The notes under the pieces were generated by a model. It ran no database searches. It worked only from the letters and a program-made list of their open reading frames with translations, and was not told the DNA's origin. Of a stretch of 64,000 nt of DNA, positions 15,314 to 59,838 are shown one piece after another (the stretch's first letter is position 1; the number at the start of each line of letters is the position of its first letter). Source of the stretch: Pseudomonas sp. IAC-BECa141. Its GTDB lineage: Bacteria > Pseudomonadota > Gammaproteobacteria > Pseudomonadales > Pseudomonadaceae. The position numbers and the translations under genes were made by a program. Location: assembly GCF_020544405.1 (NCBI RefSeq), contig NZ_CP065410.1, forward strand, positions 5,547,501 through 5,611,500, given 5' to 3'.

Positions 15314-15907
15314 TTAGCGCGTGCCGCCAGTTTGTTTGAGGAAGTTGGCGAACAGTTCATGGCCCTGTTCGGTGAGGATCGATTCCGGGTGGAACTGTAC
15401 GCCCTCGATGTTCAGGGTTTTGTGACGCAGGCCCATGATTTCGTCGACCGAGCCGTCATCGTGCTGAGTCCACGCGGTCAGCTCCAGGCAATCGGGCAAC
15501 GTTTCGTGTTTGACGATCAGGGAATGATAGCGGGTGACGGTCAGCGGGCGGTTCAGACCGGCAAACACGCCCTTGTCCTCGTGAAATACCGGGCTAGTCT
15601 TACCGTGCATCACCTGTCGGGCGCGGACGACATCCCCGCCAAAGGCCTGGCCGATGGACTGGTGGCCGAGGCAGACGCCCAGGATCGGCAGTTTGCCGGC
15701 AAAGTGCTTGATGGCTTCGATGGAAATGCCGGCTTCGGTCGGCGTACACGGGCCTGGGGACACAACGATCCGCTCAGGGTTGAGCGCTTCGATTTCGGCG
15801 ATGGTCAATTCGTCGTTGCGCACCACTTTGACCTCGGCTCCCAGCTCGCCGAGGTATTGCACAACGTTGTAAGTAAAGGAGTCGTAGTTGTCGATCATCA
15901 GCAACAT
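15314..15907 (-). CDS. trpG: Anthranilate synthase glutamine amidotransferase subunit
   Basis: Class I glutamine amidotransferase subunit that supplies ammonia to TrpE. The 197-residue protein has the nucleophile C79 in GVCLGHQ and the FHPES His/Glu pair near residue 170. The frame is open 36 codons further upstream to 16015, but [14 protein letters not shown] is the usual N-terminus, so the ATG at 15905-15907 is used. The extended leader upstream carries a candidate attenuator. Confidence 0.97.
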
Positions 15908-16067: not shown

Positions 16068-16154
16068 TCAGGCGCGCCAACGCCAGCGGGCGTGTGCCTT
16101 GATGACTTGATCCAGAAGTTTGCTGGTGATCAACACGGGGAAGGTCTCGTTCAT
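16068..16154 (-). CDS. Candidate tryptophan leader peptide upstream of trpG
   Basis: A 28-codon ORF starting at ATG 16154 and ending in ARWRWRA. It has two tryptophan codons near the stop, 160 bases upstream of trpG. Its last 22 residues match the C-terminus of Gph, just upstream of trpE, at 15 of 22 positions. The DNA of the last 13 codons is nearly identical. Attenuation of both trpE and trpGDC has been reported for P. putida, which fits a TrpL role. No strong ribosome-binding site precedes the ATG, so the true start could be internal. In 15908-16308 I see, besides this ORF and hairpin, only the divergent estA upstream region. Confidence 0.6.
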
Positions 16155-16308
16155 ACGTTTCGGCACAGTAACTTAGCTGGGCGGAGCGTGCAATATGGCC
16201 GGGGCCGCGGGGATAAAACAATGGGAGGGTTGACGACCGATGGCAAAACGCCGGAAGTTTTTGGTACTGTCGTTTCGTTCACTACAACAATAAATAAACG
16301 GACTGCTC

Positions 16309-18219
16309 ATGATCAAACAGACATTGTTTGTACCGCTCGCCGGATGCCTGCTCGCGATGGCTTGCGCCCAGGCAAACGCCTCACCCAATCCTTATTCGAA
16401 TTTCGTGGTTTTCGGCGACAGCCTCAGCGACGCGGGAACCTTCACCGACAGCGGCGGCCCGGCCGGATCGGGCAAACGCTTCACCAACCGCACGGGGCCG
16501 AACTATCAGGACGGCAGCGGTGAGTTCTATTCGCTCAACGCCACCCAATTGCTCGGCGGCCGCCTCGGCTTCACACCGGACCAGACCGCCGCCTCGTCGT
16601 CTACCGTACGTCCCGACCAAGGCTTGCCGGATGGCAATAACTGGGCCGTGGGCGGCTACCGCACCGACCAGATTCTCGACTCGATCACCAGCCAGTCCGC
16701 CACTGGCGAACGCACCCGCGCCGGTTACCTGCCGTCGAACGGCTTCCGTGCCGACCCGAATGCCCTGTATTACCTGACCGGGGGCGGCAACGACTTCCTT
16801 CAGGGCCGCGTCACCAGTCTTCCTCAGGCGAATGCCGCCGCCGATCGACTGGTCGACAGCGTACGCACACTGCAAGGTGCCGGCGCCCGTTACATCATGG
16901 TCTGGCTGTTGCCGGACATCGGCCTGACACCAGCCATCAACGGCTCGCCGCTGCAAGCCTTCACCTCGCAACTCAGCGCCCAGTTCAATACCGAACTGGT
17001 CAGCCAGTTGCAGAGCGTCAACGCCAACGTCATTCCGCTGAACGTTCCGGTTCTGCTCAAAGAGGCATTCGCCAATCCGGCGCAGTTCGGCCTGGCCACT
17101 GACCAGAACCTGGTCGGCACCTGCTTCAGCGGCAGCGGCTGTACCGAGAACGCCCGATACGGGATCAACAGCGCCACCCCGGACCCGACCAAGCTGATCT
17201 ACAACGACGCCGTCCACCCGACCGAGGCCGGGCAGCGCCTGATTGCCGATTACGCTTATTCGCTGCTGGCCGCGCCATGGGAAGCAACCCTGTTACCGCA
17301 AATGGCTCAAGGCACCTTGCGTTCGCATCAGGACGAATTGCGTAACCAGTGGCTGGCGGATTGGGAAAACTGGCAGGCCGTTGGCCAATGGCGGGCGATT
17401 GTCGCCGGTGGCGGCCAGCATCAGGATTTCGATAGCCAGCGCAGCGGCGCCAGCGCCGACGGCAACGGTTACAACCTGAACATCGGCGGCAGCTACCGTC
17501 TCAACGACGCGTGGCGCGTGGGCGTGGCGGCGGGTTTCTACAACCAGAAACTGGAGGCCGGCGACAATGATTCGGACTACAAGCTGAACACTTATCTGGG
17601 TACCGCGTTCGCCCAGTATCAGCAGAACCGCTGGTGGGGTGATGCCGCAGTGACCGCCGGGCATCTGGATTACGACAGCCTCAAACGCAAATTCCAGCTG
17701 GGGGTCAACGAGCGCGGTGAGAAAGGCGATACCGACGGTTATGTTCTGGCCTTCAGCGGACGCGTGGGTTACGACATTGCGCCGCAAGCGAGCAGCCCAT
17801 GGCATCTGTCGCCGTTCGTCAGTGCCGACTTTGCCAAGGTTGAAGTCGATGGATATTCGGAAAACGGCGCCGACTCCACCGCACTGACGTTCGATGACCA
17901 GTCGCGCATTTCCCGGCGTCTCGGCCTCGGGATCCAGGGCAAGTATCAGATCACCTCGCAGACCCAGGTGTTCGGCGAATTCGCCCATGAGCGCGAGTAC
18001 AACGACGACACCCAGAATGTGACGATGAACCTCAACAGCCTGCCGAACAACCGCTACACCCTGGCCGGCTACGCCCCTCAAACCAACCTGAACCGCCTGA
18101 ACCTGGGCGTGAGCCACAACCTCACCAAGGACCTGGCATTGCGCGCCAGCTACGACATCCGCAAGGATGACGACTTCACCCAGCAAGGGATCAACGTCGG
18201 CGTAGCGCTCGACTTCTGA
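16309..18219 (+). CDS. estA: GDSL-type autotransporter esterase EstA
   Basis: Outer-membrane esterase with the catalytic domain displayed at the cell surface. The 636-residue protein begins with a signal peptide ending near ANA-S (residue 24). The GDSL nucleophile S38 lies in FGDSLSDAG, block III is GGGNDF near residue 160, and the Asp-His pair is in DAVHPTEAG near 305-308. From about 370 a C-terminal beta-barrel runs to a terminal phenylalanine (VGVALDF), as needed for outer-membrane insertion. Length is close to P. aeruginosa EstA (646). It lies alone between trpGDC and trpE and ends at a strong terminator. Confidence 0.95.
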
Positions 18220-18231
18220 TTCGCAGGCCAC

Positions 18232-18269
18232 AAAAAAACGCGGCGCCCTCACAGGCGCCGCGTTTTTTT
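18232..18269. terminator. Bidirectional terminator between estA and trpE
   Basis: A7, then CGCGGCGCC paired with GGCGCCGCG around CTCACA, then T7. The near-perfect symmetry lets it end both estA and trpE transcripts. Confidence 0.95.
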
Positions 18270-18289
18270 GTGGCTGAATCATCAATCAC

Positions 18290-19768
18290 TCAGTCCGGGG
18301 TTTGCTCGGCCAGCGCAACAGCGCGGAACATTGCCCGGCGCTTGTTGATGGTTTCTTCCCATTCCAGCGCCGGCACCGAGTCGGCGACGATACCGCCACC
18401 GGCCTGCACGTGCAGTTCGCCGTTCTTGATCACGGCGGTGCGGATCGCAATCGCAGTGTCCATGTTGCCGTTCCAGGCGAAGTAGCCGACCGCACCGCCA
18501 TACACACCACGCTTGACCGGCTCCAGCTCGTCGATGATTTCCATCGCGCGGATCTTCGGTGCGCCGGACAAGGTACCCGCCGGCAGGATCGCCCGCAGCG
18601 CGTCCATCGCCGTCAGCCCGGTTTTCAACTGACCGGTCACGTTGGACACGATGTGCATCACGTTGGAATAACGCTCGATGACCATCTTCTCGGTGAGCTT
18701 CACCGAACCGATTTCCGAAACGCGACCGGTGTCGTTGCGTCCGAGATCGATCAGCATCAGGTGCTCGGCGATCTCCTTGTCGTCCGACAGCAGGTCTTCT
18801 TCCAGCGCCACGTCCGCCTCTTCGGTAGCCCCGCGAGGACGGGTGCCGGCAATCGGGCGTACGGTGATCAGGTTGTCTTCGACCCGCACCAGCACTTCCG
18901 GCGAACTGCCGACGACATGGAAATCGCCGAAGTTGAAGAAGTACATGTAGGGGGTCGGGTTGAAGCAACGCAGCGCGCGGTACAGATCGATGGGTGCCGC
19001 CTTGAAGTCGATCGACATGCGCTGGGACGGCACGACCTGCATGCAGTCACCGGCGAGGATGTATTCCTTGATGGTGTCGACGGCTTTTTCGTAGTCGTCC
19101 TGAGTGAAACTGGAGCGGAACACCGGCTCGGCGGCCTGCTGCTTGCTGAAGTCCAGGCCACGGCGCGGGGTGATCGGCTGACGCAGTTTTTCCAGCAGTT
19201 GCTGCAATTGCGCCTGGCCCTGCTCGTAGGCATCGGCCTGCGCCGGATCGGCCAGCACGATCGCGTGCATCTTGCCGGCGAGGTTGTCGAACACCACCAC
19301 CGCATCGGAAACCATCAGCAGGATGTCCGGCACGCCCAGCGGATCCGGGTTCGGGCATTTGCCGAGGCGCTTCTCTACATAGCGCACGCAGTCGTAACCG
19401 AAGTAACCCACAAGGCCACCGTTGAAACGCGGCAGACCGGCGATGGTCGGCACGTTGTAGCGGGCCTTGAAGGTTTCAACGAAAGCCAACGGGTCTTCGA
19501 CGTCGTGGCTTTCGGTCTCGACGCCATCGACGGTGATGCTGACGTGATGATCGTGAACCCGCAGCACGGTGCGGCACGGCAGGCCGATGATCGAGTAACG
19601 GCCCCATTTCTCGCCGCCCTGCACCGATTCGAGCAGGTAGGAGTTGGGCTGGTCGGCCAGTTTCAGGTAGATCGACAGCGGCGTGTCGAAGTCGGCCAGG
19701 GTTTCACAGGCCAGCGGGATGCGGTTGTAGCCATCAGCGGCCAGACGCAGGAATTCTTCGCGAATCAT
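18290..19768 (-). CDS. trpE: Anthranilate synthase component I
   Basis: Uses chorismate and ammonia from TrpG to make anthranilate, the first step of tryptophan synthesis. The 492-residue protein shows an LLES feedback-binding segment near residues 45-50. The conserved chorismate-binding C-terminal half includes PSQRMS, GTRPRG, DLGRND and GTLSGAPK. It is the last gene of rpe-gph-trpE; gph ends 71 bases upstream, with a probable Trp-responsive leader at the junction. Confidence 0.98.
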
Positions 19769-19815
19769 AGGGTGCCTCGTGGTGTGAGGTGCAAATCAGT
19801 CAGGTGTGCAAACGC

Positions 19816-19829
19816 GCCGGCAGGCCGGC
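19816..19829 (-). promoter_or_regulatory. Candidate attenuator hairpin between gph and trpE
   Basis: On the minus strand GCCGG-CCTG-CCGGC forms a 5-bp GC stem about 10 bases past the gph stop, followed by GCGTTTGC. Position and sequence parallel the hairpin after the leader ORF upstream of trpG. The U tract is weak. Confidence 0.4.
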
Positions 19830-19839
19830 CAGGAACAAG

Positions 19840-19884
19840 TCAGGCGCGCCAACGCCAGCGGGCCAGGGCCTTGATGACTTTCAT
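19840..19884 (-). CDS. TrpL-like leader embedded in the 3' end of gph
   Basis: The last 14 codons of gph begin with an internal ATG and end ARWRWRA, with two tryptophan codons close to the stop. That is the same length as E. coli TrpL (14 residues). A ribosome stalling here would be at the gph stop, 71 bases before trpE. No clear ribosome-binding site precedes the internal ATG, so translation of gph itself may provide the sensing ribosome. This is a candidate regulatory reading of a coding segment. Confidence 0.5.
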   Translation of the reverse strand: MKVIKALARWRWRA

Positions 19885-20658
19885 CCAGAGTTTGCGGGTG
19901 ACCACCACGATGGCGTTTCCAGAAGGGGATTGAGAAGCGTCGGGCAACGTTATCTCAGCGGCCGTATCCAGGCAACCGGGAATTAGCTTGCGCAGATCGT
20001 CGATGACCAGCGCCGGGGATTCCTCGGCGATCGGCCGGCCATGGTTGTAGCCGTAACTCAGCGCAACACATTTGACCCCCGCCGCTTTCGCCGCCAGCAC
20101 GTCGCTGCGCGAATCGCCGACGAACAGCGATTGCGAGGCCGGAATGCCGGACATCTTCATGACAAAGAACAGCGCTGCCGGGTCAGGCTTTTTCTGCGGC
20201 AGCGTATCGCCGCCGATGATCCACTTGAAGTAGCGGCCGATCTTCATCTGATCCAGCAGCGGCGCGACGAAGCGCTCCGGCTTGTTGGTGATCAGCGCCA
20301 TGGCCACGCCCTGCTTGTGCAGCCATTTCAGGGTGTCACGCACGCCGGGATAGACCACGGTCAGTTCATGGCTGGCGCCGTAGGCTTCCATGAATACCTC
20401 CAGCGCATGCTCGGCTTCGACGTCATCCACGGCGGAATGATCGATGCCGCCGGCCAAGGCGCGGCGCACCAGCACCGGCGCGCCGTTGCCGACCCACTCG
20501 CGCACCGACTCGATACCGGCAGGCTTGCGCCCGAGGGAGAGCAGCATGTTATCCACCGCCGCCGCCAGGTCGGGTACCGAATCGATCAGCGTGCCATCCA
20601 GATCGAACATCACCAACCGCGGCAGTTGCCCCGGGAACAGCTGCTCAAAACCGCTCAT
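19840..20658 (-). CDS. gph: Phosphoglycolate phosphatase
   Basis: HAD-family phosphatase that removes 2-phosphoglycolate. The 272-residue protein has the catalytic DLDGT motif (D19, D21), the ITNKP motif near residue 123, and a GDSRSD metal-binding segment. About 45 residues beyond the core HAD fold lead to a basic, Trp-containing tail that may double as the trpE leader. The ATG overlaps the rpe stop by 4 bases (ATGA), so it is translationally coupled to rpe. Confidence 0.96.
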
Positions 20659-21329
20659 GGGCGAGCCAGCGCCAGTTCGGAACGCATCTTGTCGATGACT
20701 TCCTGATAGTTCGGCGCATTGAAGATCGCCGAGCCGGCCACAAAGGTGTCGGCGCCAGCGGCAGCGATTTCACGGATATTGTTGACGTTGACGCCGCCGT
20801 CGATTTCCAGGCGGATGTCACGGCCCGAGGCATCGATGATCGCGCGCGCTTCGCGCAGCTTGTCGAGGGTGCCCGGAATGAATTTCTGCCCGCCGAAGCC
20901 CGGGTTGACGCTCATCAACAGGACCATGTCGACTTTGTCGATCACGTACTTGAGCACGTCCAGCGGGGTCGCCGGGTTGAACACCAGGCCGGACTTGCAG
21001 CCGCCTTCACGAATCAGTTGCAGCGAACGATCGACGTGCAGCGTGGCTTCCGGGTGGAAGGTGATGTAAGTGGCGCCGGCCTCGATGAAGTCGCCGACGA
21101 TGCGATCCACCGGGCTGACCATCAGGTGCGCGTCGATCGGCGCGGTAATGCCGTACTTGCGCAGCGCGGCGCAGACCATCGGGCCGATGGTCAGGTTCGG
21201 CACATAATGGTTGTCCATGACATCGAAGTGAACGAAGTCGGCACCGGCGGCCAGAACGTTGTCCACTTCCTCGCCGAGGCGGGCGAAGTCGGCGGAGAGA
21301 ATCGACGGAGCAATAACGAAGGGCTGCAT
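20655..21329 (-). CDS. rpe: Ribulose-phosphate 3-epimerase
   Basis: Interconverts ribulose-5-P and xylulose-5-P. The 224-residue TIM barrel has the metal-binding [16 protein letters not shown] segment near residues 37-52 and VNPGFGGQ near 143. The ATG at 21329 gives the normal N-terminus ([15 protein letters not shown]); the frame is open 22 codons further up. It is first in rpe-gph-trpE. Confidence 0.97.
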
Positions 21330-21443
21330 GACGCACCTTTTCTGAGCTAAATCACGATGGCGCGCATTGTATACCTCAAGTTTCCGCGCGCGCACCGTGA
21401 CCGCGATGATTGGGTTGTGCCATGACCGGCGGCCGGGCGGTTC

Positions 21444-22592
21444 TCAGTACGCCGCCCGGTAGATCTTCTCGATGTCGGCGGCGCTGAGCTTGCGCGGGTT
21501 GTTGCGCATCAGGCGCTCGATCCCCGCGGCCTCTACGGCCATGGCCGGGATCGCCTCTTCGGGCACGCCGAAACTGCGCAGACCCAGCGGAATTTCTACC
21601 GCCGCGCACAGTTCGGTCATCGCCGCGACGGCGCTGTCGGCCGCTTCATTGAAACTCAGATGAGCGGTCTTTACCCCCATGGCTTCGGCAATATCCTGCA
21701 TCCGTTCGACGCAGGCCATCTTGTTCCAGGTCATCACATACGGCAGCAACAGCGCATTACTGACGCCGTGGGCAATGTTGAAGCGCCCGCCCAGCGGATA
21801 CGCCAGCGCATGCACCGCGCCGACCCCGGCGTTGCCGAACGCCATGCCGGCCATCAGGCTGGCGGTGGCCATGTCTTCCCGGGCCTGCAGGTTGGACGGA
21901 TTGGCGTAGGCCTTGGGTAAGGAGCGGGCGATCAACCTGATGGCGCCGATGGCCAGCGAATCGGTAATCGGCGAGGCATTCAGCGACAGATAGGACTCGA
22001 TGGCATGCACCAGCGCATCGACGCCACTGGCGGCGGTGACACTGCGCGGGCAGGTCAGGGTCATCTGCGGGCTGACCAGCGCCACGTCCGGCAACAGGTA
22101 GTCGCTGACAATGCCCTTCTTCAACTGAGCGACCTTGTCCGAAAGAATCGCTACGTTGGTCACCTCAGAACCTGTGCCGGCCGTGGTCGGGATGGCGATC
22201 AGCGGCGGGCCCTTGCGCGGCACCTGATCGACGCCGAACAGATCCTCCAGCGCACCGTGATAACCGGCATACGCCGCGACACTCTTGGCGATGTCGATGG
22301 CACTGCCGCCGCCCAGACCGATCAGCCCGTCATGCCCGCCTTCGCGATAGACGCGCATGCAATCCTCGACGATGGCGATTTCCGGATCCGGCAGCACCCG
22401 GTCGAAGATTTCGTACTCGCGCTCGCCGATCTGCGCCAGCGCCAGCTCCACCGTGCCGGACTTGACCAACGCGGCATCGGTGACGATCAGCGGGTTATCG
22501 ATGTCCAGCCGCGTGAGCTCGGCCGCCAGCTGCTCGATGGCTCCGGCGCCGGTGATCAGTTTGTGAGCGATCTTGAACGAGGAAAGACTCAT
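21444..22592 (-). CDS. Iron-containing alcohol dehydrogenase
   Basis: Group III alcohol dehydrogenase of 382 residues. It has the GGGSAIDIAK nucleotide-binding motif near residues 96-105, and metal ligands in SGVDALVHAIE (Asp, His) and HALAYPLGGRFNIAHG (two His). It resembles YiaY/FucO/4-hydroxybutyrate dehydrogenase relatives, so the substrate is not fixed. The start at 22592 (MSLSSFK) is preferred over 22661. It lies upstream of rpe on the same strand with a 114-base gap. Confidence 0.9.
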   Translation of the reverse strand: MSLSSFKIAHKLITGAGAIEQLAAELTRLDIDNPLIVTDAALVKSGTVELALAQIGEREYEIFDRVLPDPEIAIVEDCMRVYREGGHDGLIGLGGGSAIDIAKSVAAYAGYHGALEDLFGVDQVPRKGPPLIAIPTTAGTGSEVTNVAILSDKVAQLKKGIVSDYLLPDVALVSPQMTLTCPRSVTAASGVDALVHAIESYLSLNASPITDSLAIGAIRLIARSLPKAYANPSNLQAREDMATASLMAGMAFGNAGVGAVHALAYPLGGRFNIAHGVSNALLLPYVMTWNKMACVERMQDIAEAMGVKTAHLSFNEAADSAVAAMTELCAAVEIPLGLRSFGVPEEAIPAMAVEAAGIERLMRNNPRKLSAADIEKIYRAAY

Positions 22593-59761: not shown

Positions 59762-59838
59762 GGGCCTATAGCTCAGTTGGTTAGAGCAGAGGACTCATAA
59801 TCCTTTGGTCCACGGTTCAAGTCCGTGTGGGCCCACCA
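59762..59838 (+). tRNA. tRNA with CAU anticodon, probably tRNA-Ile2
   Basis: A 77-base cloverleaf with encoded CCA. The acceptor stem is GGGCCTA/TGGGCCC, the D arm GCTCAGTTGGTTAGAGC, the anticodon loop CTCATAA (anticodon CAT) and the T arm CACGG-TTCAAGT-CCGTG. The GACTCATAATC...TTGGTC pattern resembles E. coli tRNA-Ile2 (lysidine-modified CAU) more than elongator tRNA-Met, so AUA-isoleucine is favoured; Met remains possible. Confidence 0.9.

What the first reader, a model, noticed from the sequence alone, without database searches (positions are those of the whole stretch)
19840..19884. The C-terminus of Gph doubles as a TrpL-like leader for trpE
The last 14 codons of gph begin with an internal ATG and end ALARWRWRA, with two Trp codons just before the stop. 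The stop is 71 bases from trpE and is followed by a GC hairpin. Length and Trp placement mimic E. coli TrpL. If real, the ribosome that senses charged tRNA-Trp may be the one finishing Gph, so a metabolic enzyme carries an attenuator leader as its own tail. Attenuation of trpE has been reported in P. putida; the embedding in gph is what I infer from this sequence.
Basis: partly seen in the sequence, partly recalled or inferred. Interest (0 to 1): 0.8.

Follow-up and report, generated by a model that had tools for sequence, protein, structure and literature searches.

The report
Tryptophan leader peptide inside gph tail
In this Pseudomonas the last 22 codons of a sugar-phosphate phosphatase gene look like the tryptophan-sensing leader peptide of the next gene, trpE, nested with its own predicted promoter inside the phosphatase gene, so the enzyme seems to carry a gene-control device as its tail.

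Summary
In detail: gph ends [14 protein letters not shown], 71 nt before trpE. Comparison shows that this tail is a trp leader peptide, not a Gph domain. All 121 gph-trpE junctions examined at genus/family level keep WRWR before trpE. In 103 the leader is fused in frame to gph; in 18 gph ends earlier and the peptide is a separate ORF. A paralogous 22-aa leader precedes trpGDC in this window. Corrections: the likely start is GTG 19908 (in frame in 121 of 121), not ATG 19884 (absent in 3), giving 22 aa with three Trp codons. A promoter-like TTGN3-N17-TAN3T precedes the GTG in 150 of 157 trpE leaders (5 of 4303 control windows), so trpE probably has its own promoter inside gph. The leader start can pair with the trpE ribosome site; partner-swap tests favour coevolution, with some imperfect controls. 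The readout is unsettled: no U-rich terminator here, and folding did not show that stalling frees the trpE ribosome site. The gph linker is not conserved as protein, yet its frame stays open more than a rough neutral estimate predicts, so Gph-finishing ribosomes may matter. New variant of a known kind.

The parts
19840..20658 (-). gph, phosphoglycolate phosphatase, 272 aa; HAD core to about residue 226
   Evidence: NF009698 matches 1-272, TIGR01449 matches 16-225
19909..19980 (-). linker of gph (residues 227-250), not conserved as protein; holds the promoter-like element
   Evidence: residues 228-248 differ at codon positions 1/2/3 by 0.345/0.260/0.300 against 0.144/0.102/0.412 in the core
19970..19975 (-). 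predicted -35 TTGCCT of a trpE promoter inside gph
   Evidence: TTGN3-N17-TAN3T in 150 of 157 leaders, 5 of 4303 control windows; not listed by the standard scan
19947..19952 (-). predicted -10 TAACGT (start of transcription expected near 19940, inferred)
   Evidence: spacing exactly 17; only 3 of 6 matches to TATAAT
19915..19920 (-). weak ribosome-site-like GGAAAC before the GTG (GAGA in many other lineages)
   Evidence: complementarity weak
19840..19908 (-). trpE leader ORF, GTG start, 22 aa [22 protein letters not shown], in frame with and forming the end of gph
   Evidence: paralog
19885..19887 (-). Trp codon 8 of the leader
   Evidence: an extra upstream Trp at leader positions 6-10 in 120 of 121 loci
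19849..19857 (-). Trp codons 18 and 20 (TGG CGT TGG), the likely stall site
   Evidence: WRWR motif in 121 of 121 junctions chosen by gph match, not by motif
19903..19910 (-). helix I 5' strand UCGUGGUG (overlaps the leader GTG)
19777..19784 (-). helix I 3' strand CACCACGA (overlaps the trpE ribosome site)
19890..19895 (-). helix II 5' strand GCAAAC
19808..19813 (-). helix II 3' strand GUUUGC
19816..19829 (-). hairpin after the leader stop, followed by GCGUUUGC (no U-run)
19775..19778 (-). trpE Shine-Dalgarno GAGG
   Evidence: trpE sites mean -5.93 kcal/mol over 119 loci
18290..19768 (-). trpE, anthranilate synthase component I
16165..16193 (-). predicted trpGDC leader promoter TTGCAC-N17-TACTGT
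   Evidence: motif in 25 of 30 trpG leaders
16068..16136 (-). trpGDC leader ORF, GTG start, 22 aa [22 protein letters not shown], paralog of the trpE leader
15332..15907 (-). trpG, 191 aa

Best explanation
The end of gph is a nested trpE control module: a sigma70-like promoter and a 22-codon leader ORF (GTG 19908 to TGA 19840) with three Trp codons, followed by a hairpin and by sequence that can pair back to the leader start. In the main Pseudomonas lineages this module is read in frame as the last ~45 residues of Gph, of which the last 22 are the leader peptide. Supported by comparison: leader identity, GTG start, promoter-like element, fused and unfused states, a paralogous leader before trpGDC, coevolving pairings. 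Inferred: when charged tRNA-Trp is short, ribosomes stall at Trp 18/20. Those ribosomes may have started at the GTG on trpE's own transcript or be finishing Gph on read-through transcript. Stalled and queued ribosomes keep the leader start region from pairing with the trpE ribosome site, so trpE is translated; when Trp is plentiful the pairing closes. This last step, the readout, is the least certain.
For: WRWR kept in 121 of 121 junctions; separate ORF in any frame in unfused relatives; paralog at trpGDC; 117 of 119 genus genomes hold the codon pattern. Promoter-like element 150 of 157 against 5 of 4303. Tail differs 0.015/0.002/0.077 at codon positions 1/2/3 against 0.144/0.102/0.412 in the core, linker without codon periodicity. 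Helices I and II: own partners bind better than swapped partners, 0 of 20000 swaps as good for each, 41 nonredundant loci of 157. Changes on both strands include GCAAAC/GUUUGC, GCACAG/CUGUGC, CACACAC/GUGUGUG, GCAAGC/GCUUGC and ACACAU/AUGUGU. trpG leaders, 23 nonredundant of 30, show no such pairing (17837 and 15675 of 20000 swaps as good).
Against: Equilibrium folding of 40 loci with ribosomes placed at the Trp codons did not expose the trpE Shine-Dalgarno: mean unpaired 0.286 with none, 0.258 with a stall at Trp 18, 0.271 with a stall plus a ribosome at the GTG (raised by over 0.05 in 15 of 40); in L001 0.002 without ribosomes and at most 0.04 with any. Some pairing controls deviate too: reversed 3' region for helix II z -2.87 against -5.04 real, one decoy z -2.68, GCAAAC region against trpE RBS z -2.28. 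With five loci dropped, helix I weakens to 69 of 20000. In several loci (L037, L060, L064, L070, L101, L102) the best partner found for GCAAAC is a hairpin arm rather than GUUUGC, and L070, L075, L087, L090 and L098 lack the CCACGA of helix I. The standard promoter scan found nothing, and the promoter pattern was chosen after one search had shown it. The GTG ribosome site is weak. No expression data.
Confidence: 0.6

Rival explanations
1. Same leader, but the readout is transcription termination: the post-stop hairpin (or Rho in the C-rich stretch before trpE) ends the transcript when Trp is plentiful, as in classical attenuation.
For: A hairpin with changing sequence follows the stop in most junctions (read by eye; rough partner-swap test z -2.07, 104 of 5000). 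In L206/L207 it is followed by a U-run. A paper on P. aeruginosa 3' ends reports premature ends next to a potential GTG uORF before trpGDC, above its cut-off only in azithromycin-treated biofilms (PMC8297930; passages and one section seen). Attenuation of P. putida trpE and trpGDC is the title claim of Olekhnovich and Gussin 2001 (title seen in a reference list; paper not held).
Against: Only UUU after the hairpin in the window and no terminator-like site on this strand. About 10 nt between stop and hairpin leave no room for an E. coli-type antiterminator. Helices I and II can form only after RNA polymerase has passed the hairpin (reasoning). The 3' end paper names trpE only in a reference title.
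Confidence: 0.35
2. The fusion with gph is passive: only ribosomes starting at the GTG on transcripts from the nested promoter matter, and Gph merely reads through regulatory DNA.
For: Promoter-like element and GTG are conserved in fused and unfused lineages; the linker shows no protein-level conservation; fusion is patchy on the tree; the leader is kept in L106 and L058, where gph ends early.
Against: In 96 loci of the main fused group the 69-nt linker has about 493 parsimony substitutions, of which 9.2 stop-creating ones are expected if unconstrained; only 2 of 96 loci have lost the frame. The leader ribosome site is weak.
Confidence: 0.4
3. The tail is a real functional C-terminus of Gph and the Trp codons are a coincidence.
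For: NCBIfam NF009698 models all 272 residues as Gph.
Against: Absent from gph in 18 of 121 junctions, where the peptide is a separate ORF, out of frame with gph in 14 of the 18; linker unconstrained as protein; paralog before trpGDC.
Confidence: 0.02

Closest known systems
E. coli trpL ribosome-mediated attenuator (recalled)
   Same: Short leader ORF before a trp gene with two Trp codons 3-5 codons before the stop, hairpin after the stop, leader transcript of similar predicted length.
   Different: Leader is in frame inside gph, likely starts at GTG, 22 aa with three Trp codons; no U-rich terminator in the window; no E. coli-type antiterminator seen; no Rfam match.
trpE and trpGDC attenuation in Pseudomonas putida (Olekhnovich and Gussin 2001, J Bacteriol 183:3256; title only seen)
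   Same: Same genes in the same genus; very likely the same leaders.
   Different: Paper not held, so it could not be checked whether it already places the leader inside gph or names the GTG start.
ampC attenuator overlapping frdD in E. coli (recalled)
   Same: Promoter of a downstream gene embedded in the end of an upstream gene.
   Different: No Trp-coding leader and no in-frame fusion of a leader peptide to the upstream protein.
ermC-type translational attenuation (recalled)
   Same: Proposed readout: a stalled leader ribosome opens a helix over the downstream ribosome site.
   Different: Signal would be uncharged tRNA-Trp rather than an antibiotic; readout not shown here.

Membership tests
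Trp leader peptide (ribosome-mediated control) | Short ORF with several Trp codons just upstream of a trp gene | tested here: met
Trp leader peptide (ribosome-mediated control) | Trp codons conserved across relatives | tested here: met
   WRWR in 121 of 121 junctions picked by gph, not by motif. More distant order members: 17 of 29 fetched loci have trpE in the fetched stretch, and by my reading 15 of the 17 have a separate ORF ending in or close to WRW or RWRW
Trp leader peptide (ribosome-mediated control) | Expression responds to tRNA-Trp charging | not testable with these tools
   No expression data
E. coli-type transcription attenuator | Intrinsic terminator (hairpin plus U-run) before the structural gene | tested here: not met
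   Hairpin followed by GCGUUUGC; no terminator-like site on this strand in 17500-21500
E. coli-type transcription attenuator | Mutually exclusive antiterminator | tested here: inconclusive
   Alternative pairings exist, none of the E. coli layout seen
Rfam Trp_leader or other Rfam family | Match to a curated model | tested here: not met
   None at gathering score here; the only window match is a tRNA at 59762-59835; one weak unrelated match at E 2
Translational attenuator (SD occlusion relieved by stalling) | Conserved helix over the downstream ribosome site | tested here: met
   Helix I, 0 of 20000 swaps as good; 69 of 20000 with five loci dropped; not formed cleanly in every lineage
Translational attenuator (SD occlusion relieved by stalling) | Stalled ribosome frees the downstream ribosome site | tested here: inconclusive
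   Equilibrium folding shows no consistent gain; kinetics not modelled

The most novel reading that the evidence does not exclude
The in-frame fusion is itself selected: ribosomes finishing Gph on rpe-gph-trpE transcripts are a main Trp sensor for trpE, so the enzyme's own C-terminus is the leader peptide and a housekeeping ORF is kept open to deliver ribosomes to an attenuator.
Probability: 0.3. Interest if true: 0.8.

Novelty: new variant of a known kind. Interest (0 to 1): 0.6.

Why it matters
It shows how a leader peptide can be absorbed into an upstream enzyme and then be annotated as part of it (the NCBIfam Gph model runs to the last leader residue). It gives testable coordinates for trpE control in Pseudomonas, a paired paralogous leader at trpGDC that lacks the trpE-type pairing, and a natural set of fused and unfused species for asking whether the ribosome of an ordinary gene can serve as the sensor of an attenuator.

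Tried and rejected
Rejected: ATG as the leader start; the tail as a Gph domain; pairing of the leader ribosome site with the post-hairpin region (2565 of 5000 swaps as good); pairing of the leader stop with the trpE SD (4-5 bp, looked at by eye only). A plain MAFFT alignment with RNAalifold gave no useful consensus because the hairpin region misaligns, so pairings were tested by partner swapping; no covariance model was built and the count of structure pairs was not used. Folding with occluded ribosomes did not support the readout. A first script read leaders one base out of frame and was redone. The script scores L103 as unfused because gph is partly duplicated there; its places show it fused, so 102 and 19 become 103 and 18. 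The tree carries the same wrong label, is a quick one, does not keep the three outgroup rows together, splits some same-genus rows (L225 and L226; L205 from L202, L204 and L233), and leaves out most fused rows over 91% identical to the window's Gph; its six changes are an upper guide only. Fourfold sites of the linker (0.126) and of residues 249-257 (0.141) are as low as those of the tail (0.130), because sites are compared only where the first two bases agree and because the promoter lies there, so fourfold sites alone do not single out the tail. Literature: nine searches were answered; judged by titles and abstract starts, none of the papers listed describes the embedding in gph. Passages of PMC2965389 say nothing on Pseudomonas trp. 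Subscription papers are mostly not held.

Full report
Observation. gph (19840-20658, minus) ends [14 protein letters not shown] with two TGG codons before TGA, 71 nt from trpE, followed by a GC hairpin. NCBIfam NF009698, a 272-residue Gph model, covers the tail to its last residue, while the general phosphoglycolate phosphatase model and the Pfam HAD models end at or before residue 226.

Relatives. Gph was searched in 119 genus genomes (118 with a match) and 145 order genomes (71 with a match). 120 stretches were fetched on top of the loci returned: all 118 genus matches, the 3 family matches outside the genus, and 29 of the 66 remaining order matches. All 121 genus and family junctions (gph identity 56% or more) keep the WRWR motif before trpE; they were chosen by gph, not by the motif. 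The script fused and 19 not; one of the 19, L103, carries a partial tandem duplicate of gph and is fused, giving 103 and 18. In the 18, gph is 226-239 aa long (258 in L058, where a frameshift ends it), and the peptide MK(V/I)[10 protein letters not shown](A/L) or a close variant is a separate ORF 64-73 nt before trpE, out of frame with gph in 14 of the 18. Of the 29 order loci 17 have trpE within the fetched stretch; by my reading 15 of these 17 have a separate ORF ending in or close to WRW or RWRW. I infer that the separate leader is older and that fusion with gph is a lineage-specific state. On a rough TrpE tree of 134 rows the label needs 6 changes, at least 2 forced by well supported branches; L103 is mislabelled there and some rows look misplaced, so 6 is probably too many. 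They are the nearest relatives and do not sample the genus.

Two leaders. The codon pattern hits 117 of 119 genus genomes and 45 of 59 family genomes, usually once or twice each, three times in G262 (the place list is cut). A second class of hit precedes trpG. In this window it is GTG 16136 to TGA 16068, [22 protein letters not shown], the same length as the trpE leader. Taking the in-frame GTG furthest upstream within 42-75 nt of the Trp pair, trpE leaders are 22 aa in 109 of 121, 27 in 9 and 23 in 3. The GTG is in frame in 121 of 121; the ATG is missing in 3. All 30 trpG leaders examined have the GTG. A further Trp codon lies upstream in 120 of 121 trpE leaders. Ribosome-site energy is weak for the GTG and absent for the ATG.

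Nested promoter. A position-weight scan first pointed to a site before the leader: its best score beats all gph-body windows in 86 of 121 loci. The pattern TTGN3-N17-TAN3T, written down after that scan, occurs in the 80 nt before the GTG in 150 of 157 trpE leaders (121 plus 36 from the family search), against 5 of 4303 windows of the same length further upstream in the same loci; 25 of 30 trpG leaders have it too. In the window it is TTGCCT (19975-19970) and TAACGT (19952-19947). It lies in the gph linker and is found in fused and unfused lineages alike. The loci are related, so 150 of 157 is not 150 independent events.

Selection. Among 86 nonredundant of 95 fused loci, the linker (residues 228-248) differs about equally at all codon positions (0.345, 0.260, 0.300), unlike the core (0.144, 0.102, 0.412). 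The tail (residues 258-271) is nearly invariant (0.015, 0.002, 0.077). Fourfold sites differ 0.130 in the tail and 0.405 in the core (lowest 14-codon core window 0.250), but they are also low in the linker (0.126), so that measure alone does not single out the tail. The linker is thus not kept as protein and the tail is kept at the nucleotide level. Yet only 2 of 96 loci of the main fused group have lost the frame, where 9.2 stop-creating substitutions would be expected without constraint. This is a rough estimate: it ignores indels and the promoter's own constraint, and L058 may be a sequencing error.

RNA pairing. The leader start region can pair with the trpE ribosome site (helix I), and GCAAAC with GUUUGC after the hairpin (helix II). 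A first test of both together on 30 nonredundant loci gave 2 of 20000 swaps as good as the real partners. With 41 nonredundant loci neither helix was matched in 20000 swaps. Controls: helix I reversed z -0.78 against -4.51 real; helix II reversed z -2.87 against -5.04; nine of ten upstream decoys between z -1.11 and 1.49, one at -2.68; four downstream decoys between -0.28 and -1.83; GCAAAC region against trpE ribosome site -2.28; leader ribosome site against post-hairpin region 0.06. With five loci dropped (L100, L196, L206, L211, L212) and a narrower window, helix II stays at 0 of 20000 (reversed 660) and helix I gives 69 of 20000 (reversed 10689); a run of six Watson-Crick pairs is found in 29 of 36 real and 22 of 36 reversed cases, so run length alone is weak evidence. 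trpG leaders show no such pairing. An inner pairing between the region around the leader ATG and the leader stop region also scores (1 of 5000). Helix I is not clean in every lineage, and in several loci GCAAAC pairs better with a hairpin arm. Swapping does not model the tree, so these numbers are not probabilities.

Readout. I expected stalled ribosomes to free the trpE ribosome site. Equilibrium folding over 40 loci did not show it. There is no U-rich terminator in the window, although L206/L207 have a U-run after the hairpin. PMC8297930 (passages and one section seen) reports premature 3' ends next to a potential GTG uORF before trpGDC in P. aeruginosa, above its cut-off only in azithromycin-treated biofilms; trpE occurs there only in a reference title. 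The readout stays open between translational occlusion and termination.

Verdict. The start codon, the length, and the picture that Gph ribosomes alone do the sensing are not. Attenuation of trpE in P. putida was already claimed (title seen); whether the embedding in gph is in print could not be settled with the open library.

Noticed in passing
16068-16193, minus: A paralogous 22-aa leader with its own promoter-like element precedes trpGDC; trpG leaders lack the pairing seen at trpE.
   Followed up: partly
L103 (G051 contig 1, 1591660-1596000): The 3' part of gph with its leader is duplicated in tandem before trpE.
   Followed up: no
L058 (G034): The gph frame is shifted in the linker so that gph stops in a TGA overlapping the leader ATG (ATGA); may be real or a sequencing error.
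   Followed up: partly
L206 and L207, after the leader stop: In another genus of the family the post-stop hairpin is followed by a run of T, as in an intrinsic terminator.
   Followed up: no
L251: The trpG leader of one genome has three WR units (WRWRWRA) instead of two.
   Followed up: no
16309-18219, plus: A 636-aa ORF that looks like an autotransporter esterase lies between trpE and trpGDC on the other strand (function by recall).
   Followed up: no
L100, L123, L124: Insertions between the post-hairpin box and the trpE ribosome site, some with inverted repeats by eye.
   Followed up: no
G079 and G014 (L118): The two genus genomes without the codon pattern: G079 also has no Gph match at the cut-off; G014 has a diverged leader, KVLGRWRWRH.
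   Followed up: no
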